Below, in pieces: positions 9,247 to 51,754 of a stretch of DNA of 64,000 bases; position 1 is the first letter of the stretch; each line of letters opens with the position of its first letter. The translations under genes were made by a program, and so were the position numbers. The notes below the pieces were generated by a model. That model was not told the origin of the DNA, did not search any database, and saw only the letters and a list, made by a program, of their open reading frames with translations. Source of the stretch: Lysobacteraceae bacterium. GTDB taxonomy: Bacteria; Bdellovibrionota; UBA1018; JAGTJX01. Location of the stretch: NCBI GenBank assembly GCA_023657465.1, contig JAGTJX010000003.1, forward strand, positions 610,830 through 674,829. The letters are read 5' to 3'.

Positions 9247-10423
9247 TGTTTTTCATTTCCTTCAAAGCTTGAGTAAACGCTGCCATGAATTCATCAATGT
9301 GCATCTTCTCGGTGATGAGCGGAGGGAGGAGTCTCAGTACATTCTCACCTGAACTAATGCAGAGGATGCCTTGTTCAGCGAGTTGCTTAATCAGTGGCGC
9401 GACTTTGATATTCATCTCCACACCGATCATGAGTCCTGCGCCTCTGATCTCTTTGATGATTGAAGGGAAGCTAGCCTGTAGGTCGTTGAGTTGTGAACTC
9501 AGCATATCGCCCATCTCTGTAACTCGGGAGAGGAATCCAGGTTTCAGCACCTCAGTGAGTACAGCAACTCCAGCAGCTGCGACAATGGGATTCGCACCGA
9601 ATGTGCTCCCGTGATCTCCATAGTCCATACTCTCTGCTACTTCATCAGTTATGAGAACTGCCCCACAAGGAAGTCCGCCGCCCAGAGGCTTAGCAAGAGT
9701 CATCATATCCGGAGTCACTCCACTCCACTCGTGAGCCCAGAGCTTGCCAGTACGACCCAGACCACATTGAACTTCATCAAACACAAGAAGTGCGCCGTGC
9801 TGGGTACAGAGCTCACGCACTGACTTCAGAAATTCTGGATTAGCTGGAATAATCCCGCCTTCACCTTGAATGGGTTCAAGGAATACGGCTGCAGTCTGCT
9901 TATTGATTCCGAAGAGAACTGAGCTCATTGAATTGAATTCTAGAAACTCTACTTCTGGAATCAGAGGTTCAAACGGCTCACGGTACTTGGCCTTCTCAGT
10001 GATCGAGAGTGCACCTAGTGTCCTGCCGTGAAACCCACCTTTAAAAGAAATGATTTTATGTTTATCAGTCGCTCCTGATTTTAATATTTTCTTACGAGCA
10101 AACTTAATGGCAGCTTCGTTGGCTTCTGTACCTGAGTTACAGAAGAACACTCGCTCAGCAAAAGAATTCTCAATCAAAGTCTCAGCGAGTTTCCTCATGG
10201 GAGCAGTCCAATAAAGATTGGAGACATGCGAGAGCTTGGCTGCTTGCTCACTAATCTCGCGCACTACTGAAGGATGTGAATGGCCTAGTGCCTGAACTGC
10301 AATCCCTGAAGCGAAGTCCAAATACTTCTTCCCAGTTGTATCGTAAACGTACATGCCTTCACCACGCTCAAGTGTGAATGGGAATCTCTGATAAACATTG
10401 AGCAGTGGATCTTGAATACTCAT
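9239..10423 (-). CDS. argD: Acetylornithine aminotransferase
   Basis: A 394-residue class-III PLP aminotransferase converting N-acetylglutamate semialdehyde to N-acetylornithine. Conserved features are FFCNSGTEANEAAIK, FDEVQCGLGRTG with Asp216, and the PLP lysine K245 in LAKPLGGGLPCGAV. The position between argB and the acetyltransferase supports ArgD over other omega-aminotransferases. It overlaps both neighbours. Confidence 0.95.
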   Translation of the reverse strand: MSIQDPLLNVYQRFPFTLERGEGMYVYDTTGKKYLDFASGIAVQALGHSHPSVVREISEQAAKLSHVSNLYWTAPMRKLAETLIENSFAERVFFCNSGTEANEAAIKFARKKILKSGATDKHKIISFKGGFHGRTLGALSITEKAKYREPFEPLIPEVEFLEFNSMSSVLFGINKQTAAVFLEPIQGEGGIIPANPEFLKSVRELCTQHGALLVFDEVQCGLGRTGKLWAHEWSGVTPDMMTLAKPLGGGLPCGAVLITDEVAESMDYGDHGSTFGANPIVAAAGVAVLTEVLKPGFLSRVTEMGDMLSSQLNDLQASFPSIIKEIRGAGLMIGVEMNIKVAPLIKQLAEQGILCISSGENVLRLLPPLITEKMHIDEFMAAFTQALKEMKNSA

Positions 10424-11157
10424 GAGAACACCGTCCCTTCTCTTCCATCTTTGGTGATCCAGACTTCTGGAATACCTGCAGCGACTGCACTGAGCGCCGC
10501 TCTCACCTTAGGGATCATACCGCCTGTGATGGTTCCATCGGCAATCAGTGCTTCTGCTTCCGCTACATTCAACCGATCCATCTTCTTACCCTGTTTGAGT
10601 ACTCCAAGAACATTCGTCACAAACCGGATGGATTGAGACTTGAGAGCGAGAGCCACGCCCACTGCTGCAGAATCTGCATTGACGTTGTAAGCTTGTCCCT
10701 CTTCATCCACTCCGAGTGGAGCGATCACGACGATCTTCTCCAGTTTCAGTTGAGACTGAATGGGTAGAGTGTTGACTCCAGTGACTTCTCCTACGAATCC
10801 TAAGTCCTGTCCGTCCTCAAGTACGAGCTTCTTAGCTTTGATGAGTCCACCTTCAAACCCAGCCATGCCTTCAACAGCAAGTCCACCTAAACGGAGTGCA
10901 GCTACGATCGCAGAGTTGATTTTCCTCCAGAGCACGAGCTTCACTAGCTCTAATGTTTGAGAGTCTGTTACTCTTAATCCATCGATGGTTTTGTGTGGAA
11001 TTCCTGCTTCCGACTGAAGCTTGGTGATTGAGCTTCCGCCACCATGAACGAGGATCACTCCTGTGTCTTTGAATTGAGCAAGTTCTTGAGAGAAGTTTTT
11101 GAGAAACTCCTTATCTTCAGACTCTGCTCCACCTAGTTTAATCACTGTAGTCTTCAT
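10420..11157 (-). CDS. argB: Acetylglutamate kinase
   Basis: A 245-residue amino-acid kinase that phosphorylates N-acetylglutamate. The VILVHGGGSSI loop and the late NVNADSAAVGVAL and GGMIPKVRAAL motifs are present. No N-terminal helix of the arginine-sensitive hexameric type is visible, since the protein starts directly with MKTTVIKLGG, so feedback inhibition may act elsewhere. Its ATG overlaps the argC stop. Confidence 0.94.
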   Translation of the reverse strand: MKTTVIKLGGAESEDKEFLKNFSQELAQFKDTGVILVHGGGSSITKLQSEAGIPHKTIDGLRVTDSQTLELVKLVLWRKINSAIVAALRLGGLAVEGMAGFEGGLIKAKKLVLEDGQDLGFVGEVTGVNTLPIQSQLKLEKIVVIAPLGVDEEGQAYNVNADSAAVGVALALKSQSIRFVTNVLGVLKQGKKMDRLNVAEAEALIADGTITGGMIPKVRAALSAVAAGIPEVWITKDGREGTVFS

Positions 11158-13375: not shown

Positions 13376-14136
13376 GTGAATGGGGACACTATTGAAAATG
13401 GCCCATTAGTAACAGTGAGAATAGGATACGAACATCCAGGGCAATCTTCGGAATTTAATGGAGCTGCGTTTTCTGTTGGATCAGCGCTATTTAAATTATC
13501 AAAATGAACAAGAAGCCTAGTATTCCTGTCTGAAGTAAAAGGACTAGCCGCTGGGACAAAATCTCCAGTATAACGAGCAAAATTAGACACTCTCACTTTA
13601 TCAATTACACCAGGAAACCAAGCGGTACCCGTTGTATCGCTTCCAATATATGTAGAAGCTGCAGTGCAGTTCAAACCTCCACCACCTCCACCAGTTCCTG
13701 CAAAAACACCATTAATGTAGAGATTAACAACGCTACTTGAAGGATGAGTCATCGCAACATGAGTTCGAACTCCTAAAGTAATAGGAAAATTAGAAGTAGT
13801 TGCAACATAAGTACCACAACCACCATTGGTTACCACTCCGACCAAGTTAAGTCCTGTTGTTATAAAAACCTGTGGCCTAAAGGAACCAGAATTAAATCTA
13901 TAAATATATCGATTGCCAGAAGGAATATAAGAATCAAGCCTTACCCAAGCTTCTATTGTAAGTGGAAAGATAAGAGTCATCGAAGAATGTGTGACCACTG
14001 CAGAGCCCGACCCATAAAACTGAAGCGCTCTACCGAACCATTGACTAAATACTGAAGACATTGACGTCAGCATCCCAGGCCCGCAGCCAGAAACATTAGC
14101 ACAAGCAATCAACACAAGAATTGAAGTGTAACGCAT
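13372..14136 (-). CDS. LamG-like (ConA-type) lipoprotein
   Basis: The protein starts MRYTSILVLIACANVSGC with a lipobox, then has one ConA-like/LamG jelly-roll domain: LTIEAWVRL, the Gly-rich loop in LYINGVFAGTG, and the closing PGVIDKVRVSNFARYTG. A GTG at 14157 would add seven basic residues. A surface location and glycan binding are inferred. The second mature motif CGPGMLTS recurs in the broken homologue at 52.8-53.5 kb, so this is a small paralogous family here. Confidence 0.75.
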   Translation of the reverse strand: MRYTSILVLIACANVSGCGPGMLTSMSSVFSQWFGRALQFYGSGSAVVTHSSMTLIFPLTIEAWVRLDSYIPSGNRYIYRFNSGSFRPQVFITTGLNLVGVVTNGGCGTYVATTSNFPITLGVRTHVAMTHPSSSVVNLYINGVFAGTGGGGGGLNCTAASTYIGSDTTGTAWFPGVIDKVRVSNFARYTGDFVPAASPFTSDRNTRLLVHFDNLNSADPTENAAPLNSEDCPGCSYPILTVTNGPFSIVSPFT

Positions 14137-14173
14137 CTTGTATTTATACCTCTTCACGGGTTAAAAGTATCAT

Positions 14174-15061
14174 ATGAAACGAAGCAAGAACACAAGAGCC
14201 CTCATCAGTAGAGACGGAAGTTTCAATGTCATCTCGCGAGGAGTCGATGGTCTCAAAATTGGCGATCTCTATCACACTCTCCTTACCCTTCATGGCGGAA
14301 TACTTCTTTTGCTCACCTTTGCACTTTTCATCGCAGTGAACGTCATTTTCGCTACTCTTTATTATTCTTGTGGTCCGACTGCACTCGATGGCATCGATCC
14401 TAGGAACGGTTTTTCTTACTGGTTTGATTGTTTCTTCTTCAGTGTTCAGACTTTCGCTACTATTGGTTACGGCAAAATGGTCCCTATTGGCACTATCCCT
14501 AATATTCTCACTGTCATTGAATCGTTCATCTCCCTCATGATGGGAGCGATCATCACAGGTATTTTCTTCTCCAAGTTTTCTCGAGCCACTGCACGCGTCC
14601 TCTTCAGTAACAAAGCCTGCATCACTACAGTTGATAGTGATCTCTGTTTGTTTTTCAGAATGGCGAACGAGCGGTTCAATCAAATTGTCGATGCGGAAAT
14701 TGATTTTTACTTATTAAAACGAATAGAAACAAAAGAAGGCAAAACGTATCGCGTCCCTATTCATCTCGAATTAGAAACCAAACGCATTTCGATTTTCGCT
14801 CTTGGATTCACAGTATTTCACATCATCGGTAAGCACAGCCCTCTCCACGGACTCACAGAAAAAGACATCCACCAAATCGACGGACAATTCGTCGTCACTG
14901 TCCGCGGTTTGGACGGAACTATGAATCAAACCATTCATGCCAGACACGCTTACTCTCCAAACGAAGTCATGTGGGGACATGATTTTGTAGACATGATGAA
15001 CTCAACCAAGGAAGTGACTGAAATTGACCTGTCCTTGATTCATGATACGCACGCTGTTTAG
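14174..15061 (+). CDS. Inward-rectifier potassium channel, KirBac type
   Basis: A 295-residue KirBac-like channel. A first membrane helix (GGILLLLTFALFIAVNVIFA), the pore loop with selectivity filter TIGYG at residues 96-100, and a second helix ending FFSKFSRATARVLFS are followed by the cytoplasmic immunoglobulin-like Kir domain (ACITTVDSDLCLFFRMAN). All expected parts are present. It is divergent from the lipoprotein gene, with starts only about 40 bases apart. Confidence 0.93.
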   Translation: MKRSKNTRALISRDGSFNVISRGVDGLKIGDLYHTLLTLHGGILLLLTFALFIAVNVIFATLYYSCGPTALDGIDPRNGFSYWFDCFFFSVQTFATIGYGKMVPIGTIPNILTVIESFISLMMGAIITGIFFSKFSRATARVLFSNKACITTVDSDLCLFFRMANERFNQIVDAEIDFYLLKRIETKEGKTYRVPIHLELETKRISIFALGFTVFHIIGKHSPLHGLTEKDIHQIDGQFVVTVRGLDGTMNQTIHARHAYSPNEVMWGHDFVDMMNSTKEVTEIDLSLIHDTHAV

Positions 15062-15096
15062 TGCTTTTAGCCCATTCGCGTGTTAATGTAACACCC

Positions 15097-16236
15097 ATGG
15101 CAAAGATTATAATTCGTGAAGTTGTAGACAATAAGTCCGGCATCAAAGAGTTCGTCGATGTGATGTGGAAAATTTATGATCAGAAGAAGTTCCCTCAATG
15201 GGTTCCACCTCTGAGACTCTCAGTCATTGAAGCACTCGATACTGTACATAATCCTTTTTACAAACGCGCTACCATTCAGATGTTCATCGCTGAGCGCGAT
15301 GGCAAACCTGTTGGTCGTATCGCAGCGGTTGAGAACCGAGCACACAACGAATTCCATAATGACAAGATCGGCTTCTACGGATTCTTCGAATGTATCGAAG
15401 ACCAAGAAGTCGCAAACGCTCTCTTCTCATTTGCAGAAAAATGGTTGAAGGCGCGTGGACTCACTGCCATGCAAGGACCGATGAATCCATCAACCAATCA
15501 TGAATGCGGTCTCCTCGTTCGAGGTCAGAGCCAACACCCGACCATCATGACGACTTGGAATCCTAAGTATTACGAAGAACTCCATGATTGCTATGGTCTC
15601 ACTAAGGCCAAGGATCTTGTGGCCTACATCATTGCCCGTGAGAAGAACACCGAGCTCCCAAAGAAAGTCAAAGACCACGTTGCAAAACTCAGAGCAGAAA
15701 ACTCACGAGTGAAATTCCGTGACTTCGATGTGAAAAACTTCACTAAGGAAGTCGAAAACTGTTTTGAAATTTACAACTCTGCTTGGGAGAAAAACTGGGG
15801 ATTCTTCCCTATGACCAAGGAAGAGTTTGTCTATGCCGCTAAGGACATGAAGATGATCATGGATCCCAAGATGGCATTCATGGCTGAAGTGGATGGAAAA
15901 CCTGCAGGATTCATGCTTGCTCTTCCTGATATGAACCACGTGTTCAAACGCATTCCTACTGGCAGATTATTTCCAACTGGAATATTCAAACTTTTAATCG
16001 GTAAGAAACTCATGAAATCCGTACGCATCATCACTCTCGGTGTGAAGCCAGAGTTCCGAGGAACTGGAATCTTCGCACTCTTCACCATGGAATCCTTCGA
16101 ACGCGCTCAGAAGTACGGATACATTGCGGGAGAAGCCTCATGGATTTTAGAAGACAACGTTGAAATGAATAAGCCTTGGGTAGACTTGGGTGCTCCACTC
16201 TATCGCAGATGGCGTATCTACGAGAAGCAGCTTTAA
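15097..16236 (+). CDS. GNAT-fold protein, unknown substrate (YghO-like)
   Basis: About 379 residues from ATG 15097; an upstream GTG at 15061 would add twelve. The N-terminal segment (WKIYDQKKFPQWVPPLRLS), AMQGPMNPSTNHECGLLV, and the C-terminal acetyl-CoA-type stretch TLGVKPEFRGTGIFALF with EASWILEDNVEMN match a family of large GNAT-like proteins annotated as hypothetical (YghO). The substrate is unknown. The preceding channel gene ends 36 bases before the chosen start. Confidence 0.75.
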   Translation: MAKIIIREVVDNKSGIKEFVDVMWKIYDQKKFPQWVPPLRLSVIEALDTVHNPFYKRATIQMFIAERDGKPVGRIAAVENRAHNEFHNDKIGFYGFFECIEDQEVANALFSFAEKWLKARGLTAMQGPMNPSTNHECGLLVRGQSQHPTIMTTWNPKYYEELHDCYGLTKAKDLVAYIIAREKNTELPKKVKDHVAKLRAENSRVKFRDFDVKNFTKEVENCFEIYNSAWEKNWGFFPMTKEEFVYAAKDMKMIMDPKMAFMAEVDGKPAGFMLALPDMNHVFKRIPTGRLFPTGIFKLLIGKKLMKSVRIITLGVKPEFRGTGIFALFTMESFERAQKYGYIAGEASWILEDNVEMNKPWVDLGAPLYRRWRIYEKQL

Positions 16237-16242
16237 ACACAG

Positions 16243-16881
16243 ATGCTTCATTCTAATTCTAAACCTTTACTCAGAGGACATTTTCACCAAGCCATGTTTT
16301 TTATCATGATAGGTGCATGTGTTCCTTTGATCATGAGATGTCATAATTTAGCTGAGAGAGTTTCTATCATCATTTATACCCTGTGCACGCTAACGATGTT
16401 TGGAGTGAGTACACTATATCACCGGAAAAACTGGAACAAAAAACATCGCTTATTCTGGAAAAAGCTCGATCATTCTGCCATCTTTCTCATGATTGCAGGT
16501 ACATTTACTCCCATTGCTTTTCTCAGTTTAAGTCCATCCTCAAGCACAAAACTTCTCATCATGAGTTGGGGAGTAGCCCTAGCAGGAATTGTACAATCTA
16601 TCTTTTTTGTAAATCTACCTAAACTCGTTCATTCTATTATTTATTTAACGGCAGGATATTTAGTTCTACCGTATTTTTCAGAAATTAAACTTTCAGTAGG
16701 CCAGAGTAATATCTGGCTGATCATTGCTGGAGGAATCGCCTTTTCATTAGGAGCTATTTGTTACGGTATTAAGCGACCGATTCTCAATCCACAAGTGTTT
16801 GGATACCATGAAGTGTTCCACCTGTTAGTGAATTGCGGCGCCATTCTTCATTTTATTGTGATCAATTCATTAATTAAGTAA
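16243..16881 (+). CDS. Hemolysin III / PAQR family membrane protein
   Basis: A 212-residue, seven-helix membrane protein. The family's metal-site motifs are visible: STLYHRKNW in the first region, KLDHSAIFLMIAGTFTPIA in the second, and GYHEVFHLLVNCGAILHF near the C-terminus, giving the conserved Asp/His set. In eukaryotic PAQRs these bind zinc; the bacterial role is uncertain. It is the last chromosomal-type gene before the element array. Confidence 0.88.
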   Translation: MLHSNSKPLLRGHFHQAMFFIMIGACVPLIMRCHNLAERVSIIIYTLCTLTMFGVSTLYHRKNWNKKHRLFWKKLDHSAIFLMIAGTFTPIAFLSLSPSSSTKLLIMSWGVALAGIVQSIFFVNLPKLVHSIIYLTAGYLVLPYFSEIKLSVGQSNIWLIIAGGIAFSLGAICYGIKRPILNPQVFGYHEVFHLLVNCGAILHFIVINSLIK

Positions 16882-16906
16882 CGAACATCTTGTTATCAAT
16901 TTGCAG

Positions 16907-16980
16907 GTGATTTCAACTAGTGAGTCTCAAATGAAAAAGGCCACTCTCTTGAATGAGAACGGCCTTCATCGAATGGTTGC
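16907..16980. repeat. Left-end att-like repeat of the tRNA-fMet element array
   Basis: This 74-bp stretch repeats, with changes, the sequence at 31453-31523 and at 51614-51684. It includes GTGATTTCAACTAG, a terminator-type hairpin (AAGGCC...GGCCTT) and the tRNA 3' end GAATGGTTGC. It is probably the displaced host sequence downstream of the tRNA, and so the outer left boundary of the array. The stem region is the most diverged of the three copies. Confidence 0.75.
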
Positions 16981-17262
16981 ATCGCTGTGTCCTAAGTCAT
17001 TGCAATAACTTATGTTTGAGGGCATCCGGAAATCATCCACGCGGTATATTGGCGATGGGTCGCTCGTGCTGATTTCAGGTGGGTTATGGAACCGACGAGT
17101 TAACCGTGGATTTTTGATCGGAAAGCCAACCACTGAATCGGATGCGGCCATCGATATCGGGATTAAGAATGGAGCGGCTATCCGAAGTACTCGAAATGTT
17201 TGGCGGTTCATGAAATCCTTCTCTCGAAAATTAATTTGATAAATTGAGTTGGCTAATTATCG
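16981..17262. other. Intergenic remnant to the right of the left att repeat
   Basis: No convincing gene here. A 75-codon rightward open frame (17012-17239) and an overlapping leftward one exist, but neither has a ribosome site or a recognisable domain. Decayed element-end sequence is my best reading. Confidence 0.4.
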
Positions 17263-18033
17263 TCAATCCGTGACGAAATGGTGCAGAACGAAAATCGTTC
17301 CAATCCCGACGAGAAATCCGAGCGTCTGGCGGAGACTGCTTTTCATGTTGGCTTTATGATGAAGGACCGGAGCTAAATCCACAGTCGCGATATGAAGAAA
17401 ACTTGCCGCAGAGATCGCTAAAATATACGGCACGAACCGTTCAATGCTGGCTCCAAGCCACACTGTACATAGAGCGCCGACCAATGTTCCCAATGCCGAC
17501 AAAAAGTTCATCCAGTATGCCTTCCACCGCTCCATCCCGCTTTCGATCAGTATGACGAAATCGCCTAGCTCTTGCGGGATTTCATGCGCGATGACCGCGA
17601 AAGAGGTCGTGATCCCTAAGGGCACTGAAACGGAAAATGCGGTCGCGATCAAAACGCCATCCACAAAGTTATGGAGCGCATCCCCAATCAGGATCAAGGG
17701 GGCAGATGGAAGAACGTTTTTTTGATTTTCTTCGCATTGCCTGTGTCCGGCGGTGTGCGCATGAAGGTGTGGAAACCGAAGTGCCTTTTCCAGGATGAAG
17801 AAAACTGCCAACCCCGCGAGTACGGTCTGTAAAACGAGCTCCACAGGCGCCTGGGCGATTGCGTGGGGAAGAAGACCTAAGAACGTAGCGCCCAGCAATG
17901 TGCCGATGGCGTATGAGAGAAGGAAATTTCTTAATCGTTCGTGTAACTTTGGGAAGAGGAGTAATACGCCGGCACCAGTAAGGGCGCCTACGCTGCCTAA
18001 GAGACTAAATAGGAAAATTTACCCAAGATTCAT
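17263..18033 (-). pseudogene. ZIP-family metal transporter with nonsense codon 5
   Basis: The natural start is the ATG at 18033-18031, overlapping the upstream stop as ATGA. Translation would run Met-Asn-Leu-Gly-stop, with TAA at 18019-18021, and then continue in frame as IFLFSLLGSVGALTGAGVLL, a typical ZIP first helix. The remainder has a His-rich cytoplasmic loop (HLHAHTAGHRQ) and the metal motifs DALHNFVDG and AHEIPQELGD. An internal start at 17898 would lose the first helix. Family members move zinc or other divalent metals inward. The fifth position often carries a Trp-like residue, so one or two changes could have made the stop. Confidence 0.75.
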
Positions 18034-28443: not shown

Positions 28444-28856
28444 ACACCAAAAAAATCAAGACGGTGATCAAGCTCTGAATAGCCTAATTTTTTTAACCAA
28501 GGTGGGATTTGCTTGATGGTGCATTCCTGGATAAGTTCAACAACCTTACAAATTCTGCAAATCAAGTGATGGTGGTGATGAGAATCTTTTGAGTGTGTAT
28601 CTTCTCGGAGTTCATACCGAATCAAACCGTCTCCAAGTGCTACTGATGTCAGAATGCCCACTTCTTCAAATTTCCTAATGCATCGGTAAACCGTAACAAA
28701 ATCGGCTGTGCCTTTTTTGAGCGAGGAATGGATTCCCTCAATACTGAGGAGTTGATGATCTTTAGCAAGCAGCTCAAGAATGTGAATGCGGATGGGAGTT
28801 ACTTTCAAACCAGCTGCTCTTAACATGATGATCCATTTTTCTTTTGTTATTGCCAT
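28416..28856 (-). CDS. Fur-family regulator, probably Zur
   Basis: 146 residues with the Fur winged helix (AGLKVTPIRIHILELL, TVYRCIRKFEEVGIL), the metal site DSHHHHHLICRICK, and the CPKC second half of the structural zinc site. Control of zinc uptake is supported by the operator in its own promoter and in front of the receptor. Fur itself (iron) is the alternative, since the receptor substrate is inferred. Confidence 0.85.
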   Translation of the reverse strand: MAITKEKWIIMLRAAGLKVTPIRIHILELLAKDHQLLSIEGIHSSLKKGTADFVTVYRCIRKFEEVGILTSVALGDGLIRYELREDTHSKDSHHHHHLICRICKVVELIQECTIKQIPPWLKKLGYSELDHRLDFFGVCPKCQRAA

Positions 28857-28880
28857 GGTGGCTGCATCTTGCCAAAAGTG

Positions 28881-28913
28881 TTCTATAAATGCAATTTATT
28901 TGCATTTATAGAA
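28881..28913. promoter_or_regulatory. Extended Zur/Fur operator upstream of the Fur-family gene
   Basis: TTCTATAAATGCAA (28881-28894) and TTGCATTTATAGAA (28900-28913) are exact inverted arms of 14 bp around a five-base centre. The inner 9-5-9 core equals the receptor operator, so the regulator likely represses itself and the receptor. Confidence 0.85.
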
Positions 28914-28963
28914 TAACCTCCTCAGCAGGGTTATTCTTAAGTCCGCTGCTAGCCCCTCGCATA

Positions 28964-29863
28964 TTACTCATCTTTTAAGTCTTTCTCATCTTTACCCCAC
29001 GGCTGTGGGTTTGCCTGATAGTAACGATCTCGGTACATGTAAAAATATGGTGGTTCTGTATGTACCTTCTTTAAGGATACAGGGATTTCAAAAGTGTTAA
29101 ACACTTCATTGAAACGCCCCATCATTACTAGATCAACAACATCTTCAGCTGTATTGGCAACAGAAGCTTCATTCATATCTAAATAAGCAAACGAACTTAA
29201 TGTCGTTACGGAGCGAATTGCATTAATTATTTTCTCTAAGCGATCAAAATGGGTTCCAATATCCTTCAGAGTAATTTCTTTTGAATTCTCGGCATGCGAA
29301 TGCTCTTTGTGTTCGTGTTTGTGCGCTCTTCGTGCGTCGCGATCATGCACCATTTCTTCCGCTAATTTCCAAAACTGATCCTTAAGTGCGTCTACATGGC
29401 TGTGATTAGCCCGTTTATCAGAAACATTTTTGAGGTCAGGAAAAAGATCTAACAAAGATTCTTCAATTCCTTTGGCGATGAATTTTTGTGTATCAACCTT
29501 TAATTCTCTTTTTAGACGCGCATGATCTTGAGGTGTTAACGGTTGTCCTCTAGAGCCAGAAATATTAGGCTCTGAAACTTCAATTTTTTTATGACTTGTT
29601 GTCCGAAGCTTGGCTGCGTGAATTTTTAGTTGACCGAAAAAACCACCTGGTTGGCACATTCCACGATATAGAGAGGCTAATTCAATAATTAGCATTTCAT
29701 AACTGTCCCAAATCATTTGGTAGATAAAATCGTTACGAATTATGAACTGCTTACCACCCGTTACTTGTACAAGTTGTTTTAAAATTGCATCAAGGTAGTA
29801 GTATCGCTTCTTAATGCGAAGAATTTTGTATTCCAAATCTTTTAGTAATTCTTCAATACTCAT
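28964..29863 (-). CDS. Hypothetical protein, His-rich central segment
   Basis: About 299 residues from ATG 29863 (MSIEELLKDLEYKILR); an upstream reading to 29941 is possible. Mostly helical, with QMIWDSYEMLIIELASLYRG near the N-terminus, which has a weak look of AbiU2/HEPN-type helical proteins, and a charged middle HKHEHKEHSHAENS. No motif allows a function call. It lies between the zinc module and an IS element and could be element cargo or part of a defence gene. Confidence 0.5.
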   Translation of the reverse strand: MSIEELLKDLEYKILRIKKRYYYLDAILKQLVQVTGGKQFIIRNDFIYQMIWDSYEMLIIELASLYRGMCQPGGFFGQLKIHAAKLRTTSHKKIEVSEPNISGSRGQPLTPQDHARLKRELKVDTQKFIAKGIEESLLDLFPDLKNVSDKRANHSHVDALKDQFWKLAEEMVHDRDARRAHKHEHKEHSHAENSKEITLKDIGTHFDRLEKIINAIRSVTTLSSFAYLDMNEASVANTAEDVVDLVMMGRFNEVFNTFEIPVSLKKVHTEPPYFYMYRDRYYQANPQPWGKDEKDLKDE

Positions 29864-30120
29864 AATCCCACACCATATTCTAATATATCCCCAAACCCGC
29901 CAGGCAATTACCTCAAAAGAAAATAGTAGTTTTTTCCACACCCCTTTAGTTTAACCACCCGAATCTTCGTGAAGCGATTGGAAATTTAGATACATCTAAA
30001 ACACTTCAAAAGAGGACTCTCTACCGAGACCATGAAAAATCTCGCGGTAGCAAAACGGTAGCAAAAAAATAGCAAACTCATGAAATGTCGCGACATTTCG
30101 AGGGTCCAATAGCAGTACAT

Positions 30121-31400
30121 AGGTGACAGGTTGTTATCACTACATAGGTTACACCGAATGGTGTCAGAATCCTTGCTACTGAGGAGGGTTCTGAATGCCG
30201 TGGAAAGTGAGTCATCTGGTGAGCGAAAGAATGAAGTTTTTAATGCGCCTAGATCAAGGCGAGAATATGAGTACTCTGTGTCGTGAATTCGGAATTTCAC
30301 GAAAGACTGGATACAAGTTCTTGGAAAGATATAAGCTCTATGGCATAGATGGGCTAAGTAACCAGAAACGCAGCCCAATTACAAAACCTTTTAAAATGCC
30401 CGAGTCAGTTGAGTTCAAAGTATTGGAGCTCAAAGAGCGATACCCTGATTGGGGAGCTAGAAAAATCCGGGAGCGACTGCCGTCTGCCGGAATTTTGGGT
30501 TGCAATCTGCCTTCAATCATTACAGTGCATAGAATTCTGCGTAGACATGGCAAAGTAGAACGGAAGAAACAAAGGCTCTCTGGCAGCACAGCATTTCGAT
30601 CTGAAAAAATTCGATCGACATCAGCACCCAATCAAATCTGGGGACTTGATTTCAAAGGTCAGTTCAGAACGAGAGACGGAAAACTCTGTTATCCGCTCAC
30701 TCTTTCCGATCATTTTTCTAGATATTTACTTCTCTGTGAAGCTCTCGAAGGCGCTCAGACAAAACCAGCAGAAATTGCGTTATCTGAGGTGTTTCACCTC
30801 CATGGACTTCCTGATGCGATTTTATCCGACAATGGCTCTCCTTTTGGTTCTCAAGGACTTTTTAAGCTCTCGAGGCTATCCGTTTGGTTCATGAGACTAG
30901 GGATTGAAGTGATGCGAATCGAACCTGGTCATCCCGAACAAAACGGGAGACATGAGAGAATTCATCTGACACTCAAGCGAGCAACCACTCGTCCTGCTGC
31001 AAACAATCTCTTCCAGCAACAAGAGAGGTTCGATCGATTCATACGAGAGTACAACGATGAACGTCCTCACGAAGCTCTTAATATGAAAACACCTGCGTCG
31101 GTATGGACCCAACCCAACAGAAAAATGCCAGCCACTCTTCCTGAACCTGACTACAAAGCTGAGGATCTCATTCGAGAGCCTACCAATTACGGCCAGGTTC
31201 ATTTACAAAGAGGAAAAATGTTCACTCTGAATAGTGTTTTTACGGGTCAGCCCATTGCTCTAACTGAGGTGGAGGAGAAACTCTGGAGAATTAGATTCAT
31301 GAATTATGAAATAGGTTTTTTTGATGAGGCAGCTGAAATGTTTAAGCCGAATACGTATTTAACCCTGTTACCTATGTCCTGATAACAATGTGTTACCCAT
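30121..31400 (+). mobile_element. IS481-type insertion sequence
   Basis: Matching terminal inverted repeats: the left end reads TTGTTATCACTACATAGGTT and the right end, reversed, reads TTGTTATCAGGACATAGGTA, around a single transposase gene. The exact tips and target-site duplication are not clear by eye. The element sits at the right end of E1, just before the att repeat at 31453. Confidence 0.75.
30195..31382 (+). CDS. IS481-family transposase (DDE)
   Basis: 395 residues with an N-terminal HTH (MSTLCREFGISRKTGYKFLE), an HTH_21-type linker (YPDWGARKIRERL) and the rve catalytic core: first Asp in IWGLDFKG, second in AILSDNGSPF, and Glu in HPEQNGRHERIH. Apparently complete and full length. Starts MPWKVSHLVSERMKF, typical of this family. 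Confidence 0.92.
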   Translation: MPWKVSHLVSERMKFLMRLDQGENMSTLCREFGISRKTGYKFLERYKLYGIDGLSNQKRSPITKPFKMPESVEFKVLELKERYPDWGARKIRERLPSAGILGCNLPSIITVHRILRRHGKVERKKQRLSGSTAFRSEKIRSTSAPNQIWGLDFKGQFRTRDGKLCYPLTLSDHFSRYLLLCEALEGAQTKPAEIALSEVFHLHGLPDAILSDNGSPFGSQGLFKLSRLSVWFMRLGIEVMRIEPGHPEQNGRHERIHLTLKRATTRPAANNLFQQQERFDRFIREYNDERPHEALNMKTPASVWTQPNRKMPATLPEPDYKAEDLIREPTNYGQVHLQRGKMFTLNSVFTGQPIALTEVEEKLWRIRFMNYEIGFFDEAAEMFKPNTYLTLLPMS

Positions 31401-31452
31401 GTTTGGACTTGCACAGAGACATCTCAAGTTAGGGACTGTTGGCCGTGCCCAA

Positions 31453-31523
31453 TGATTTCAACTAGTTGATCTAAATGAAAAAGGGCCACTCTCTTGCGAA
31501 AGCGGCCTTCATCGAATGGTTGC
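31453..31523. repeat. Att-like repeat between E1 and E2
   Basis: About 71 bp nearly identical to 51614-51684, including the tRNA terminator hairpin (GGCCACTCTCTTGCGAAAGCGGCC) and the tRNA end GAATGGTTGC, after which the two copies diverge. One extra G distinguishes this copy. The second integrase gene ends 73 bp to the right. Confidence 0.85.
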
Positions 31524-36001: not shown

Positions 36002-36935
36002 TCATGCACCCAACCTCGGGAACCGTATTTTAAACACACTCGAAGCCCCGTGAGGTGTCTCCTCACCATGAGCAATAAGAACTGCTCCCATTCCTGTAGG
36101 GAGAGTCTTAAACAGGTCAGGAGATGCCCTGAATTGGTGGGCCTCTCGCTGGGTTCCTTCACTCAGCGTCTCTGCCAGATCTATCTCTTTTGCATTAGTG
36201 ATCCGCTGAGTAGTCTTTTGATAGAGTTTTGTTCCAAATGAACGCGCAAAAAACTCTGCTGAATCAGGGTCATTGATTCTGAGTACAATTTTAGTTCCAG
36301 CATTGTCCGTGATTCGATTGAGAAAGCCTTCAGAAACTTCAGCGAGATCCCCAATACTCTGATGTGAAAAATGAAGCGCAAGACCTGCAGACCTAGCCTT
36401 AGAGATCAAGTCAGCAAATTCTGGGCAAGCAAAAGAAGCAAACTCGTTTAAATAAACTGGGATAAATCTTTTTTCTTTTGAAACCTGCTCAGAGCGATGC
36501 GCGGTTCCCGCCAAAAAACTGAGGTGGTTGATTAAAAGTCTTCCGAGCGTGGTCACTAACTGTGGTGACATGAGACTTTGTAGTCTGAAGTATAAAATTT
36601 TTCCACTTTCAGCAGCCTGCAGATCGATCTGCGAACCCTCTTTGGGTGATAGTGTTTTAGATAGATGCCCCATACAGAGTGTTTTGATTTGATCGCGAAG
36701 ACCAGAGAGCTCCATGAAATCACGTTCAGCCAATTTTTTTTGGATATGTTTCTGAAACAGCGATTGCCGTATATGAGTCGGGATCTTCGAGATATGTGGC
36801 GAGATCAATGAGTCTCGGGTTTCTCTTTTTATGTCCATGATAAATTTGAAATAGAAGCTGTAACGCAGAGAACGCTTTTGATTTGTAATATTCTTCACTC
36901 CAAGTCAGAGAAGAAAACAATCTTTGTGCAGATTC
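36002..36935 (-). pseudogene. VirD4-like coupling protein, C-terminal fragment (copy 1)
   Basis: The sequence starts abruptly at SAQRLFSSLTWSEEYY and ends with a natural C-terminus (SVFKIRFPRLGA). It lacks the N-terminal membrane and Walker A part. An eight-A run near 36734, against seven in copy 2, shifts frame between YPKK and LAERDF. The Walker B strand reads PVYLNEFASFA where copy 2 has the normal Asp (YLDEFASFA). It is an inverted partial duplicate of 38005-39273. Confidence 0.85.
36366..36935 (-). repeat. 570-bp inverted repeat, left copy
   Basis: This stretch matches 38548-39117 in opposite orientation over its whole 570 bp, differing at scattered positions and by two compensating one-base indels. 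It lies within the two coupling-protein copies. The 1.6 kb between the repeats holds the end of an upstream transfer gene, the VirB10-like gene and the coupling-protein N-terminus. Confidence 0.9.
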
Positions 36936-37173
36936 TACGGGCGTTCTTCTGCCGAATTGGAAGCAAGTTCGCTTGACCAGCCAAGGTCGAGCTCTCGTGC
37001 CCTATAAGTTATGGAGCGAGCGAAAAGACGTGCAGCGAGATTCAAGTGTCAAAGCTAGATTTATTTTTGCAAAGCCAAATCTCCAAAGAAATTTACAGGA
37101 TGCAACCCTTGTTCTGCCTCTCATCGGTGATTCGAGAGCTATCAGTCTACAACTTAAAGGAGGCATCCGTTGA
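36936..37173 (+). pseudogene. 3' fragment of a transfer gene
   Basis: An open frame with no start codon of its own begins exactly at the repeat boundary (GVLLPNWKQVRLTSQGRALV) and ends in TGA overlapping the TTG start of the next gene. The protein looks like a C-terminal domain of a secretion-system component, but I cannot name it. Its 5' part has been lost at the duplication junction. Confidence 0.5.
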
Positions 37174-38004: not shown

Positions 38005-39273
38005 GTGATTACAGACGAACTCTTACTCGCTCTTTTGGTGTTTGGTCTTGGTGGCATGGCTATCACGCAGTTTTACACATCGTTAGGTGTCGTGGATGCT
38101 TTTCTTTTTATTGTGTTCTCGGCAGCGTCTGCCTCGATAGGTTTAGTTTTATTATGGGAACAGAGATCTAAATCAGGGCGAGACGGAAAAAAACGTCAGG
38201 AATTTATCAAAGAATTACCTCGTTTTCTACTTTGTGCCAACATTGACTCTATTTGCTTAGGTCGTGATGATGATTTGAGAGCGAAAATATATCTCAAAGA
38301 CTCTCTGAGGTTGCGACATGTTCATATTTTGGGAGCGACAGGATCTGGTAAAACAGAAAGCGTTATTTTAAATTTTTTAATGCAAGACGTGGCCAGAGGT
38401 TACGGCGGGATAATTCTTGATGCCAAGGGTGATGCATCGTTCTTGGCTGAACTCAAGAGGTGCATTCCAGAGGATCGTTTGCAGGTTTTTGATTTGGGGT
38501 CAGAAGAAAGCCTGACCTATGATCCACTCGTAGCAGGTACGCCGCTTGAATCTGCACAAAGATTATTTTCTTCTCTGACTTGGAGTGAAGAATATTACAA
38601 ATCAAAAGCATTCTCGGCTCTACAGCTCATGTTTCAAATTTATCATGGACACAAAAAGAAAAACCCAAGACTGATTGATCTTGCCACTTATCTCGAAGAT
38701 CCTGACTCGTATACAGGAGTTACTGCTTCAGAAAAATATCCAAAAAAATTAGCTGAACGTGATTTCATGGAGCTCTCAGGCCTTCGCGATCAAATCAAAA
38801 CACTCTGCATGGGGCATTTAGCTAAAACTTTATCACCGGAAGAGGGTTCACAGATCGATCTGCAGGCTGCTGAAAGTGGAAAAGTTTTATATTTCCGACT
38901 ACAAAGCCTTATGTCACCACAATTAGTGACTACACTCGGAAGACTTTTAATCAATCACCTCAGCTTTTTGGCAGGAACCGCTCATCGCACTGAACAGGTT
39001 TCAAAAGAAAAAAAGTTTATTCCGATTTATTTAGACGAGTTTGCTTCTTTTGCTTGCCCAGAGTTTGCTGACTTGATCTCTAAGGCTAGATCTGATGGCC
39101 TATGCGCTTCATTTTTCTTCTTCCTGCTGTTTCAGCCAACCACCCAGCATTTTACCTACTTCATTGATCCTATAAACTCCGTGTTTATAACCTGCGTGGG
39201 GCAAAATCTTCTGCTCGTGAGCAATACGAAGAATGATTCTAATTTCTTCGAGCTTCAGATTGGCTCGCCTTAA
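38005..39273 (+). pseudogene. VirD4-like coupling ATPase, 3'-truncated (copy 2)
   Basis: Starts at GTG 38005. Two membrane helices (residues 5-25 and 32-50) precede Walker A GATGSGKT (110-117), LDAKGD and Walker B (YLDEFASFA). After FADLISKARSDGL a one-base insertion relative to copy 1, then a foreign junction at about 39117, replace the C-terminus with unrelated residues. The normal C-terminal third is present only in copy 1. Coupling proteins feed DNA or protein substrate to type IV secretion channels. Confidence 0.8.
38548..39117 (+). repeat. 570-bp inverted repeat, right copy
   Basis: Partner of 36366-36935. Homology starts at GAATCTGCACAAAG and ends at CTTCATTTTTC, which is also where the avd gene ends on the other strand. 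The junction therefore abuts the DGR genes. Confidence 0.9.
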
Positions 39274-39450
39274 AATGAACGCCTTGTTTTTAGCGTACCT
39301 AGCCTCCGTAAAATCCTCGACTACATCGAACATGAGGTTAATTAGGCGGTCCGTTAGTGTTCCACGAACCCGTTTGGGGAATTTTTCGGCCGTTTGCACC
39401 ACCCAAGTGAGTGTCTCAATCCACTTAACGAATATCGGTAGATCATCCAT
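39109..39450 (-). CDS. avd: Avd-like DGR accessory protein (four-helix bundle)
   Basis: 113 residues in the order typical of Avd proteins of diversity-generating retroelements: FVKWIETLTWVVQTAEKFPK, RLINLMFDVVEDFTEARYA, ILRRANLKLEEIRIILRIAH and the end INEVGKMLGGWLK. Avd forms a pentameric basic barrel that binds the reverse transcriptase and template RNA. Its stop codon lies inside the coupling-protein junction sequence. The HRDC gene upstream overlaps it. No reverse transcriptase follows. Confidence 0.85.
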   Translation of the reverse strand: MDDLPIFVKWIETLTWVVQTAEKFPKRVRGTLTDRLINLMFDVVEDFTEARYAKNKAFILRRANLKLEEIRIILRIAHEQKILPHAGYKHGVYRINEVGKMLGGWLKQQEEEK

Positions 39451-39946
39451 CGGATTTGATCGCTTCTCTGATTACCGTAATTTTTAAAACATCCACGGTA
39501 TAACGCTCGATCTTACCAGCACCCACTCCATCCACCCTGCCAAGATCAGCAGGCGACTGGGGTCTGCTTTTAGTGATGGCGGCAAGCTGTAGATTCGTAA
39601 AAATGAGATAAGGTGGAACGCCGTCTTTTTTGCAACGCTCAGCTCTCCAATCCCGTAACTGATTAAACAAAATCATATCAACGTCACTGAGACCCTTCTT
39701 CCATTCCTCTTTTACCTTCTTCTTCTCATCACCGTCCTGTGGAGGAATAATACTTTTTTGAGTTTCTTTCCTAAACGGATAATACTTGATGATGAGAATG
39801 AGATAGGGAATTTCATTTCTAATCAGAAGGTGATCCGTGATTTGTAGCACTTCTTTGTCTCTTGAAAATTCTTGAATGACTCTATCGTCAAACTCACCCA
39901 TCAGTGCATCGAACTTTAGAGAAAAAATTTTAAGAAGCATGGACAA
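39443..39946 (-). CDS. HRDC-domain protein (DGR-associated type)
   Basis: 167 residues. The C-terminal half is an HRDC domain (LRDWRAERCKKDGVPPYLIF, then LAAITKSRPQSPADLGRVDG with VGAGKIERY). The N-terminal half (SLKFDALMGEFDDRVIQEF) is the form of small HRDC proteins that accompany some DGRs in place of or beside Avd. HRDC binds nucleic acid. It overlaps avd by eight bases; the 160 bp upstream to 40107 is AT-rich with no template-repeat-like sequence. Confidence 0.8.
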   Translation of the reverse strand: MSMLLKIFSLKFDALMGEFDDRVIQEFSRDKEVLQITDHLLIRNEIPYLILIIKYYPFRKETQKSIIPPQDGDEKKKVKEEWKKGLSDVDMILFNQLRDWRAERCKKDGVPPYLIFTNLQLAAITKSRPQSPADLGRVDGVGAGKIERYTVDVLKITVIREAIKSDG

Positions 39947-40107
39947 CCACCCCTTAAAGAAAACATTACAAAAAATATGCCAATCAAATTTATATGATTT
40001 GATCTGAATTCATCACGTGAAATCTTTTGAGGTGATTCTGGCATACGCACTTAATTTTCCTTAAATGATAAATATGTAAATTTTACGAATTTGGAATTGA
40101 AAACAGC

Positions 40108-40476
40108 TCAAAGTGACACCACATTATTTTGAATGATCGCAATGAGTTCATCTGTTTGAAAAAGCTTGTTTATTAGATCACGAGCACCACAGCGAACTGC
40201 ATCAGCCTTCGTATATAGAGGGTTTCCAGTAATTAAGACGATAGGCGTTTCAATGCCCCGGTCTCGCATTGCTCGAGATAATTCAAACCCTGTCATTTCG
40301 GGCATATTGACATCACTTAAAATCAAATCCACCTCATTAGAAAGCAAAAACTCTAATGCGATCAATCCGTTTTCAGCTTCAAATACCCTCATATTCAGTT
40401 TTCCAATATAGGACTTTACGACCCCTTTAAACAGAGCGTCATCATCGACCAGTAAAATGCGTTTATCCTTAGTCAT
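40108..40476 (-). CDS. Single-domain response regulator
   Basis: 122 residues: a stand-alone CheY-like receiver. The acidic pair is in LLVDDDALF, the phospho-Asp in LILSDVNMPE, Thr in VLITGNPL, and the usual Lys position reads INKLF. No output domain. The partner kinase is unknown. Leftward, 161 bp before the HRDC gene. Confidence 0.85.
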   Translation of the reverse strand: MTKDKRILLVDDDALFKGVVKSYIGKLNMRVFEAENGLIALEFLLSNEVDLILSDVNMPEMTGFELSRAMRDRGIETPIVLITGNPLYTKADAVRCGARDLINKLFQTDELIAIIQNNVVSL

Positions 40477-40524
40477 CGCAAGAAAGATATCACGATAAAC
40501 GACAAAACAGGAGCTAGTTAGCTG

Positions 40525-40797
40525 GTGGTGCTAATTAGCTCTAAATCAGATTCTAAGAGAGTGAAGAAAACTGAATACGATAAATATACTAAAGATACGA
40601 TTAGAGCTATTGCCTCCAATATACGCGGCATAAGAGAGAGAAAAGGGCTGACTCAAGAAGACGTTGAGAAGTTCGATTTTAATTCAAAATGGTACCAAGA
40701 AATCGAACGCGGCGTTAAAACCCCAACACTGCCCACGCTTTGTAAGCTAGCTAAAGCTTTCCGTGTCGATCTTAGGGATTTTTTTAAAGGCATCTAA
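40525..40797 (+). CDS. XRE-family HTH regulator
   Basis: 90 residues from GTG, with AGGAG upstream. Cro/CI-type HTH: IRGIRERKGLTQEDVEKFDF then WYQEIERGVKTPTLPTLCKL. It is divergent from the receiver gene and convergent with the DGR target. It might control either, but nothing more is visible. Confidence 0.8.
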   Translation: MVLISSKSDSKRVKKTEYDKYTKDTIRAIASNIRGIRERKGLTQEDVEKFDFNSKWYQEIERGVKTPTLPTLCKLAKAFRVDLRDFFKGI

Positions 40798-40825
40798 ACA
40801 ACTCTAATTTAAAAAATTGTGGCGA

Positions 40826-40887
40826 CCTTCGGCCATATCTCTTCGGCTGTCCTCCCTCCGATCGGGCCTACGAGACATGGCCGAAGG
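40826..40887. repeat. Inverted repeat downstream of the DGR target gene
   Basis: CCTTCGGCCAT (40826-40836) and ATGGCCGAAGG (40877-40887) are perfect 11-bp arms with a 40-base spacer. It lies about 55 bp beyond the target stop. It could be a terminator shared with the convergent HTH gene, or a DGR target-recognition hairpin, though it is farther from the VR than in the Bordetella phage model. Confidence 0.7.
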
Positions 40888-40941
40888 AAAGACATGAAGA
40901 ATTAAAAGCAGAAGAGTGTAAAAGGGTAAAAGCGCAAAGTG

Positions 40942-41064
40942 TTACTGTGTCCTCAACAGCCGGAAGCCGACGCCGTGCCAGCGGACGTCCGGGGAGTCGT
41001 AGCCGCGAGGAGCAGAGCGCAGGTGCCGCGCAAAGCCGTTCCAGCCACCGCCGCGGATAACGCG
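40942..41064 (-). other. Predicted variable region (VR) of the DGR target
   Basis: Last 40 codons plus stop. Codons at the positions usually variable are mostly NNC: AAC, GGC, CAC, then GGC-TAC-GAC, GTC, and CAC-GGC-GTC. All of these can arise from AAC or ATC by changing only adenines. Fixed motifs RGGGW, RSA, SPD and GFRLL separate them. No matching template repeat occurs in this window, so this is inferred from the protein pattern. Confidence 0.7.
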
Positions 41065-42405
41065 GGAAGAGCCCGAGCTGGCCAGGGGATCGGTCACGGA
41101 GCCTTTTGAATAATCTCCGTACGCATCTTCTACCCATTCCCATACGTTGCCATGCATATCGTAGGTGCCATTTGAACTTGCTTGCTTACTTGCTACTTCA
41201 TGAGTTTTGTTACCAGAATTTCCGTAGAACCAAGCGTACTCGCCTAACTTGCTCGTATCGTTACCGAATGAATATGCGGCCTGCGAACCACTACGTGCTG
41301 CGTACTCCCACTCTGCTTCTGTTGGTAAGCGATAAGTGTAGTTGTCAGCTTTGTTAGCATTCAGTTTGGTGAGGAACGCCTTGATGTCGTTATACGACAC
41401 TTGCTCAACTGGAAGGTTCGGGCAAATGCTTGTTCCACCAATAACGATGTTATCGTCAGCGCAATAAGAAGCTGAGTTAAAAGCGGATGGATTCGTACCC
41501 ATCACCTGAAACCATTGAAGCTGAGTCACTTCGGTTGCTCCGATTTCAAAGTCATGACTGATCGTCACAGAGTGAGCAGTCTCATCGCTGTAACGTCCTG
41601 ATTCAGAGTCAGGAGATCCCATTTGGAATGTTCCCTTTTTGATATCAACAAAAGGCATCGAGATTCCTTGAAAGAGCTGAACATAGCTACGCAAAATATT
41701 GAACTCGAAGCTCTCTTTATTCTTACCAAAGCTGAATTTAGTAAGATCTGATTTACTGATGAGATCGTCTACTAAATGATCAACGAGATCATTTATTGCT
41801 TTCACTGCCGATTTTAGTTCAGTTCCAGAAATTAACTCAGTTTTAACTGCGTCAAGTTTCTTTTGAAGATCTGATTTCTCAGTCACTTTGTTTCCTGCTG
41901 CTTCAGCACCCTCTGCGTCGATGAAAGCCTGAATCTTGGCAATTGCTTTCTCAAATGCAGCTTTTTGCTTCTCTAAATCCGCTACGTGAGGAAGTTGATT
42001 TTGTTTTTTATAGAGATCGATCTTCTTATCCATCTCGTCTGAATATTCTCCGTTTGGAACTTGGAGAGCCATTTTCAAATGTTCTTTGAATTCAGAGACA
42101 GGAACTTGGGATACTTTGGTTCCAGCTTTGGTTTTGCAGTCTTGGCGCTGGGAACCTGCTTTGAGTAGAGTCAAATCCTCACAAGCTTGAATGACGATAT
42201 TGCTACCATCTTTGTAGAACAGAATGACTTCGCCGTTTGGCCCCACGATGCCCACATCATAGAAGCTTGCGATTTTTCTTGCCGCTTTCTTTGTGTATTT
42301 TGTAATTTTAACTTTTGCTTTTTTCGCGGCTGGTTTTGCAACTTTTGCTTCTGCACCTGCGATTGCAAAGATTGCTGCTATTAAGGTTATTCCGATTTTT
42401 TTCAT
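40942..42405 (-). CDS. Probable DGR target: secreted FGE/C-type-lectin-fold protein
   Basis: 487 residues from ATG 42405 (MKKIGITLIAAIFAIAGAEA, a signal peptide). A basic Ala/Lys segment and a coiled coil (roughly 115-215) lead to an FGE-sulfatase-type domain from about 252: FQMGSPDSESGRYSDE, GATEVTQLQWFQVMG, RLPTEAEWEYAARSG, MHGNVWEWVEDAYGDY. It ends in the RVIRGGGWN...GFRLLRTQ module that carries the variable repeat in known DGR targets. The last 40 codons are far more GC-rich than the remainder. HRDC and avd genes lie 1 kb downstream on the same strand. A display or ligand-binding role is inferred. Confidence 0.85.
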   Translation of the reverse strand: MKKIGITLIAAIFAIAGAEAKVAKPAAKKAKVKITKYTKKAARKIASFYDVGIVGPNGEVILFYKDGSNIVIQACEDLTLLKAGSQRQDCKTKAGTKVSQVPVSEFKEHLKMALQVPNGEYSDEMDKKIDLYKKQNQLPHVADLEKQKAAFEKAIAKIQAFIDAEGAEAAGNKVTEKSDLQKKLDAVKTELISGTELKSAVKAINDLVDHLVDDLISKSDLTKFSFGKNKESFEFNILRSYVQLFQGISMPFVDIKKGTFQMGSPDSESGRYSDETAHSVTISHDFEIGATEVTQLQWFQVMGTNPSAFNSASYCADDNIVIGGTSICPNLPVEQVSYNDIKAFLTKLNANKADNYTYRLPTEAEWEYAARSGSQAAYSFGNDTSKLGEYAWFYGNSGNKTHEVASKQASSNGTYDMHGNVWEWVEDAYGDYSKGSVTDPLASSGSSRVIRGGGWNGFARHLRSAPRGYDSPDVRWHGVGFRLLRTQ

Positions 42406-42418
42406 ATAATTTCTTTTT

Positions 42419-42460
<42 letters not shown>

Positions 42461-51429: not shown

Positions 51430-51613
51430 GGTTGACCTCCCCTCTAATCGTCTTTGATAGGTTCATTAATCTAAAATTGTACGGCTTCTACGAGTAAAAT
51501 CAAAGATTCAGAACTCAAACCAACTAAGCATTCAGTAAGCAAAAAGTAAGCAAGACGGGGAAATATCGGCATGTATCGAGAAATTTCAAGTTAAGAGCTG
51601 TCGGCGCTCCCCA

Positions 51614-51677
51614 GTGATTTCAACTAGTTGATCTAAATGAAAAAGGCCACTCTCTTGCGAAAGCGGCCTTCATCGAA
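51614..51677 (-). terminator. tRNA-fMet terminator and right att flank
   Basis: Read on the minus strand, AAGGCCGCTTTCGCAAGAG... pairs with GGCCTTTTT, followed by T-rich sequence: an intrinsic terminator for the tRNA. The same 64 bp, plus the tRNA end, recurs at 31453 and, diverged, at 16907, so it forms part of the att repeat. Confidence 0.8.

Positions 51678-51754
<77 letters not shown>

What the first reader, a model, noticed from the sequence alone, without database searches (positions are those of the whole stretch)
39109..42405. Diversity-generating retroelement with target, HRDC and Avd genes but no reverse transcriptase
Seen: an FGE/C-type-lectin-fold protein whose last 40 codons (RVIRGGGWN...GFRLLRTQ) have the DGR variable-region layout, plus, on the same strand, HRDC and Avd genes. 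Known: these parts accompany DGR reverse transcriptases, which normally lie downstream of avd with a template repeat. Here avd ends exactly at the junction with a coupling-protein duplicate (39109-39117), so TR and RT appear to have been deleted or moved. The VR may be frozen, or diversified in trans by an RT elsewhere.
Basis: partly seen in the sequence, partly recalled or inferred. Interest (0 to 1): 0.95.

Follow-up and report, generated by a model that had tools for sequence, protein, structure and literature searches.

The report
Truncated sister copy of diversifying cassette
This bacterial genome holds two related gene-diversifying cassettes; the one in this window kept its variable target gene and helper genes but lost its reverse transcriptase and template, so its target is likely frozen, while the complete sister cassette on another contig probably still rewrites its own target.

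Summary
Window 39094-42460 encodes an FGE/C-type-lectin-fold target with a DGR variable repeat (VR), a response regulator, an HRDC protein and Avd, without RT or template repeat (TR). The missing half is in the same genome: contig C4 carries a sister DGR with all parts including RT and TR, 88% identical over the shared 3.4 kb. The genome gave one RVT_1 match, one TR and two VRs. In the window the RT frame is cut after MKRIGH, at a junction with a truncated conjugative coupling-protein gene. The window VR is a real DGR VR: 22 of 33 TR adenines differ, against 9 of 96 other bases. Eight of those nine are private, silent and spread along the VR; the ninth is shared with the C4 VR and is that VR's only non-adenine difference. 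So the resident TR has not rewritten the whole window VR since those differences arose; it was probably written by this copy's own lost TR and is likely frozen. The window Avd also has K69E, where 91 of 94 homologues have K. Degenerate DGR loci beside complete ones are published; this is a new, well-resolved member of that kind, useful because silent marker bases make trans retrohoming testable.

The parts
40942..42405 (-). DGR target gene (487 aa, FGE/C-type-lectin fold, VR at its C-terminus)
   Evidence: Pfam FGE-sulfatase 3.3e-42; 92% identical to the C4 target; best fold match T. denticola variable protein 1
40948..41076 (-). Variable repeat (VR), 129 bp
   Evidence: Aligns to TR C4:13548-13676; 22 of 33 A sites and 9 of 96 other sites differ
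40826..40887 (.). Inverted repeat 61 bp or more beyond the VR 3' end (arms 22 nt, 86% complementary); a similar one lies in the same place on C4; role untested
40525..40797 (+). HTH gene, divergent to the others, also in the C4 locus
   Evidence: Pfam HTH_3 3.7e-9
40108..40476 (-). Single-domain response regulator, also in the C4 locus
   Evidence: Pfam Response_reg 3.4e-24
39443..39940 (-). HRDC accessory protein (165 aa)
   Evidence: Pfam HRDC 2.2e-17; family found next to DGR RTs in 31 of 64 loci
39109..39450 (-). Avd accessory protein (113 aa), full length, with K69E
   Evidence: K in 91 of 94 homologues at residue 69
39095..39112 (-). Remnant of the RT gene: ATG and codons MKRIGH (15 codons if the longer TTG-started frame of C4 is counted)
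   Evidence: against C4 RT MKRIGHLFEK
38005..39093 (+). 5' part of a conjugative coupling-protein gene (363 codons, no stop), truncated at the junction 39093/39094
36366..36944 (-). Inverted, partial second copy of the coupling gene, 89% identical to 38539-39117
42419..42460 (.). TCTGGCC x 6.0 just upstream of the target start; homology with C4 ends here (C4 has 9.1 copies)

Best explanation
Window 39094-42460 is an RT-less and TR-less sister copy of the complete-looking DGR on contig C4 of the same genome, and its VR was probably written by a TR of its own that has since been lost, so it is likely frozen now. Shown: both loci, their 88% identity and common gene order, the RT cut after MKRIGH, the single RT match and single TR in the assembly, and adenine-biased differences in both VRs. 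Shown: the window VR has 8 private silent non-adenine differences from the resident TR, at VR positions 18 to 120. Inferred: retrohoming copies the TR and alters only adenines, so rewriting by the C4 TR would have erased these differences. Inferred: they were already in the lost TR, because the coupling-gene stub ending at the same junction has no stop in 363 codons and looks younger than the VR divergence. Inferred: RT and TR were lost by illegitimate recombination between the RT 5' end and a coupling gene, which share the motif TGCGYTTCATTTTTC beside the switch point. Predicted, untested: the target is still made, as a fixed variant, and the C4 locus goes on diversifying its own target. Not resolved: whether the two copies arose by duplication in this genome or by two acquisitions.
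For: One RVT_1 match in the genome, on C4; all DGR parts around it incl. TR; 88.0% identity over 3371 columns; TR search finds only itself and two VRs above chance. Window VR 22 of 33 A sites and 9 of 96 others; C4 VR 25 of 33 and 1 of 96. 8 of 8 private non-A differences silent; the ninth, at position 126, is shared by both VRs. In other HRDC-type loci 26 of 34 adenine-biased TR-VR pairs have at most 3 non-A differences and only 2 have 9 or more. Simulated neutral stub: 6.7 stops expected at half of the VR's silent distance (0 of 2000 runs without a stop), P=0.022 at a quarter. RT remnant MKRIGHQI*. Window Avd K69E against K in 91 of 94.
Against: All three accessory proteins are full length, and dN/dS between the copies is low (avd 0.02, target body 0.066, HRDC 0.125); most of that time may predate the RT loss, so it neither proves nor excludes present use. 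6 of 34 pairs in loci with RT hits have 4-8 and 2 have 9 or more non-A differences, so a poor match is not by itself proof of inactivity. Conversion tracts shorter than the 38-nt gap between differences 27 and 66 are not excluded. At a tenth of the VR distance a stop-free stub is unremarkable (P=0.19), and the stub is assumed neutral. The assembly is 96.3% complete, and no reads were seen.
Confidence: 0.72

Rival explanations
1. The window target is still diversified in trans by the C4 RT and TR, as a remote target.
For: An RT, Avd and TR of the same family are in the genome; the VR 3' end keeps the base that distinguishes both VRs from the TR (position 126); trans activity is reported for two degenerate loci of Thiohalocapsa PB-PSB1 (PMC10907252, section 8).
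Against: 8 private silent differences from the resident TR over positions 18-120, where the C4 VR has none; [quoted passage not shown]
Confidence: 0.12
2. The assembled genome is one structural variant: other cells of the population keep RT and TR at this locus and diversify it in cis.
For: Such variants were seen by long reads at DGR 3 and DGR 7 of PB-PSB1 (PMC10907252, section 8); the junction looks young.
Against: No reads or second strain available; the genome is the only member of its family (f1) in the 55-genome order search.
Confidence: 0.1
3. The junction is an assembly error, or the second RT and TR lie in the missing part of the genome.
For: Completeness is 96.3%; no reads were seen.
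Against: The two copies differ by 12%, so collapse of the copies is unlikely; the window lies within one contig (C2:610830-674829); the shared motif at the junction is only 15 nt.
Confidence: 0.04
4. The target is an ordinary FGE paralogue and the tail is just the family motif.
For: The tail motif RGGGW...GFRL occurs in FGE homologues of 2 of 2 same-order genomes in which no DGR-type RT was found.
Against: Adenine-biased match to a TR, p=4e-10; gene order of a complete DGR; DivGenRetAVD over its cut-off.
Confidence: 0.01

Closest known systems
Degenerate DGR loci of Thiohalocapsa PB-PSB1 (PMC10907252; passages, sections 5 and 8 read)
   Same: Several DGR loci in one genome, one complete per class, others lacking key machinery
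   Different: [quoted passage not shown] the window VR does not. It is nearer to their DGR 7, whose VRs match no TR perfectly
Leftover remote target of Treponema denticola SP32 (PMC4891356; passages)
   Same: A VR that fits another type of TR better than the resident one; HRDC accessory gene in the DGR; read as a leftover
   Different: In the passages seen only the target is left there; here HRDC, Avd and regulator genes remain and the break point in the RT is visible. The better-fitting TR is known there, not here
Pseudogulbenkiania sp. NH8B distal targets with a strongly mutated RT (PMC3521204; passages)
   Same: A DGR thought to be duplicated, with one RT lost
   Different: The authors infer that the remaining RT serves all VRs; here the VR has gathered non-adenine differences
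L036, Chromatiaceae CTD079 (named genome record)
   Same: Target, HRDC and Avd intact, RT cut short (97-aa frame)
   Different: The only RT match in that genome is this remnant; no complete sister DGR was found there

Membership tests
Complete DGR | DGR-type reverse transcriptase at the locus | tested here: not met
   RT cut after MKRIGH; only RVT_1 match is on C4
Complete DGR | Template repeat at the locus | tested here: not met
   TR only at C4:13548-13676
Complete DGR | VR with adenine-directed differences from a TR | tested here: met
   22 of 33 A sites vs 9 of 96 others
Complete DGR | Avd or other accessory protein | tested here: met
   DivGenRetAVD 94.4 bits, cut-off 80; HRDC 2.2e-17
Complete DGR | Ongoing diversification of the VR | not testable with these tools
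   No reads or strains
Degenerate DGR locus (RT-less remnant) | Target with VR, RT and TR missing, remnant of the lost part | tested here: met
Degenerate DGR locus (RT-less remnant) | A complete related DGR in the same genome | tested here: met
   C4:13548-18000
[quoted passage not shown]
   9 of 96 differ, 8 of them private to this VR
Remote target diversified in trans | IMH-like 3' end and downstream hairpin | tested here: inconclusive
   Position 126 distinguishes both VRs from the TR; inverted repeat 40826-40887, fold z-score -2.8 here and -1.7 on C4; it lies about 60 bp beyond the VR, its role is unknown

The most novel reading that the evidence does not exclude
Losing RT and TR from one of two DGR copies locks in a useful variant: the window copy is a fixed 'memory' receptor kept beside a sister that goes on exploring, and its HRDC and regulator genes (if not its altered Avd) still serve the C4 RT in trans.
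Probability: 0.14. Interest if true: 0.65.

Novelty: new member of a known kind. Interest (0 to 1): 0.42.

Why it matters
An active-looking DGR and a truncated sister lie in one genome, and the resident TR differs from the truncated copy's VR by silent marker bases. Those bases make trans retrohoming directly testable: a window VR that gains the C4 silent bases would be proof. The locus also shows one way a DGR can decay: RT and TR go, by recombination with a conjugation gene, and target and helpers stay. Target-plus-HRDC remnants without an RT may not be rare (9 of the 64 loci, as classed).

Tried and rejected
Tail motif as evidence for a DGR: rejected, since FGE homologues in 2 of 2 same-order genomes without a DGR-type RT match show it. 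Resident TR as author of the present window VR: rejected on 8 private silent differences. Selection after RT loss: not resolvable; dN/dS between the copies mixes times before and after, and polarising with P0002, P0148 and P0029 gave 8 window-side vs 4 C4-side (4 unresolved) for HRDC, 1 vs 1 for Avd and 10 vs 8 (24 unresolved) for the target. Named relatives: a genome-contig scan with the single HRDC protein confirmed none; a second with an alignment gave 64 loci. Viral contigs: none with the HRDC alignment; the target gave 166 relatives, 80 kept, best 47% identity, not studied further. RT against plasmids: 3520 records, all under 60% identity, not pursued. Promoter scan upstream of the target: none found, 1.2 expected by chance. 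The TR-VR count listed 50 rows; the 16 rows with no more differences at adenines than elsewhere (reversed pairs, other repeats) were dropped before the count of 34. The ORF lists were cut in the output; only the parts shown were used.
Full report
WHAT IS THERE. On the minus strand the window holds a target gene (40942-42405), a response-regulator gene (40108-40476), an HRDC gene (39443-39940) and avd (39109-39450), with an HTH gene (40525-40797) on the plus strand. Profile searches support each: FGE-sulfatase 3.3e-42, Response_reg 3.4e-24, HRDC 2.2e-17, HTH_3 3.7e-9, bAvd 65.3 bits (cut-off 40), DivGenRetAVD 94.4 bits (cut-off 80). The target's best solved relative is T. denticola variable protein 1, by sequence and by the fold of an AlphaFold2 model with mean pLDDT 79.6.

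THE MISSING HALF IS ON ANOTHER CONTIG. The window lies in a 2.83-Mb, 4-contig genome (completeness 96.3%). Its only RVT_1 match is C4:13896-14492. Around it lies a DGR with all parts in the same gene order: target 16534-18000, HTH 16118-16390, response regulator 15701-16072, HRDC 15036-15539, Avd 14702-15043, RT 13692-14732, TR 13548-13676. Window 39094-42460 and C4:14687-18055 are 88% identical. A search with the TR found only itself and the two VRs above chance. Avd has two matches in the genome; FGE-sulfatase has three, one of which is the TR itself.

THE BREAK. Homology to C4 stops at 39094, 15 bp past the end of avd. The RT codons MKRIGH survive (the start codon is inferred; the longer C4 frame begins nine codons earlier with TTG); then the frame runs into antisense coupling-gene sequence and stops. 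Beside the switch point the parents share TGCGYTTCATTTTTC. The coupling-gene stub 38005-39093 is open for 363 codons. On the other side homology ends in a TCTGGCC repeat just upstream of the target start, 6.0 copies here and 9.1 on C4.

TWO VRS, ONE TR. Against the TR the C4 VR differs at 25 of 33 adenines and 1 of 96 other bases; the window VR at 22 of 33 and 9 of 96. The single non-adenine difference of the C4 VR (position 126) is also in the window VR. The other 8 window differences are at VR positions 18, 24, 27, 66, 84, 93, 108 and 120, and 8 of 8 are silent. Adenine-site changes in the window fall 13, 8 and 1 at codon positions 1, 2 and 3. So the window VR was made by a DGR, but its backbone is not that of the resident TR. 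For scale: in 26 other HRDC-type loci, 26 of 34 adenine-biased TR-VR pairs have at most 3 non-adenine differences, 6 have 4-8 and 2 have 9 or more. A poor match therefore also occurs beside an RT, and alone does not prove inactivity.

TIMING. The copies are far apart: dS 0.67, 0.47, 0.41 and 0.57 for target body, regulator, HRDC and avd, with dN/dS 0.066, 0.15, 0.125 and 0.02. Silent distance in the VR is 8 of 33.7 sites, 0.286 corrected. If half of that had arisen in the window after the RT was lost, a neutral stub of that age should carry 6.7 stops; it has none. At a quarter P=0.022, at a tenth P=0.19. Hence (inference) the junction is younger than most of the VR differences, which were then already in this copy's own TR. 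This assumes a neutral stub, uniform mutation, and one event that removed RT and TR.

STATE OF THE HELPERS. HRDC and Avd are full length. Polarised by the nearest homologue, HRDC has 8 window-side and 4 C4-side changes (4 unresolved), Avd one each. The window Avd change is K69E: 91 of 94 homologues have K, the others R, T and V. That may be early decay, but one change is weak evidence.

HOW COMMON. A scan of named genomes with the HRDC alignment gave 64 loci: 31 with an RT of at least 150 aa nearby, 9 with a target and HRDC but no such RT despite at least 2.5 kb downstream, 2 cut short by the contig end, 20 with HRDC alone, 2 without a hit by this query. In the genomes of the 9, an RT-alignment search (E<=1e-10) found nothing in 5 (G055, G056, G060, G061, G066), one short fragment each in 2 (G057, where it is the locus's own remnant, and G058), three weak matches in G062 (63-65 bits) and four in G065 (48-155 bits); the three best DGR RTs of G059 scored 376-402 bits. 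L036 is most like the window: target, HRDC and Avd intact, RT frame of 97 aa. The window differs in having a complete sister in the same genome.

WHERE IT SITS. In the 55-genome order search 4 genomes had an Avd match at E<=1e-5, so the DGR is patchy. Both copies lie among integrase and conjugation genes.

WHAT IS KNOWN. Degenerate DGR loci beside complete ones, and the non-adenine test for trans activity, are in PMC10907252 (passages, sections 5 and 8). A leftover target that fits another TR better is in PMC4891356 (passages). A duplicated DGR with one dead RT is in PMC3521204 (passages). Dispersed target paralogues, one with remnant TR-VR homology and no RT nearby, are in PMC7517822 (passages). 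PMC8144416 says that its survey would miss remote targets (passage). My paper searches were made; nothing in the listings or passages I saw described this locus, and subscription journals are mostly not held.

VERDICT. This is a truncated sister copy with a probably frozen VR, ordinary in kind, unusually well resolved, and with silent marker bases that make trans retrohoming testable.

Noticed in passing
window 42419-42460; C4:18012-18075: A TCTGGCC tandem repeat directly upstream of both target genes, 6.0 and 9.1 copies; 7-bp units that differ in number could act as an expression switch.
   Followed up: no
window 16907-16980, 31416-31523, 51578-51684; tRNA-Met 51678-51754: Three similar direct repeats, the last touching the tRNA-Met gene end, look like attachment sites of two islands in tandem; the window cassette lies in the second.
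   Followed up: partly
C4:1273-3615 and 28482-30834 (L002, L003): Direct repeats of about 2.4 kb (88.7%) with tyrosine-integrase-like genes bracket about 27 kb that hold the complete DGR and T4SS-like genes: the DGR seems to ride on an ICE-like element.
   Followed up: partly
window 40525-40797: The HTH gene has dS 0.13 between the copies against 0.41-0.67 in the neighbours (Fisher p about 1e-5 on rounded counts): gene conversion between the copies, or extra constraint.
   Followed up: partly
window 36366-36944 and 38539-39117: Inverted partial copies of a coupling-protein gene, 89% identical; the minus-strand copy has a 1-nt length difference that shifts the frame and lacks its 5' part.
   Followed up: partly
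L036 (Chromatiaceae CTD079) 8947-11107: A parallel case: target, HRDC and Avd intact, RT frame cut to 97 aa, no other RT of this type found in the genome.
   Followed up: partly
L055 and L032 (second target): TR-VR pairs with 13 and 9 non-adenine differences although an RT hit lies in the same locus: candidates for stalled DGRs.
   Followed up: no
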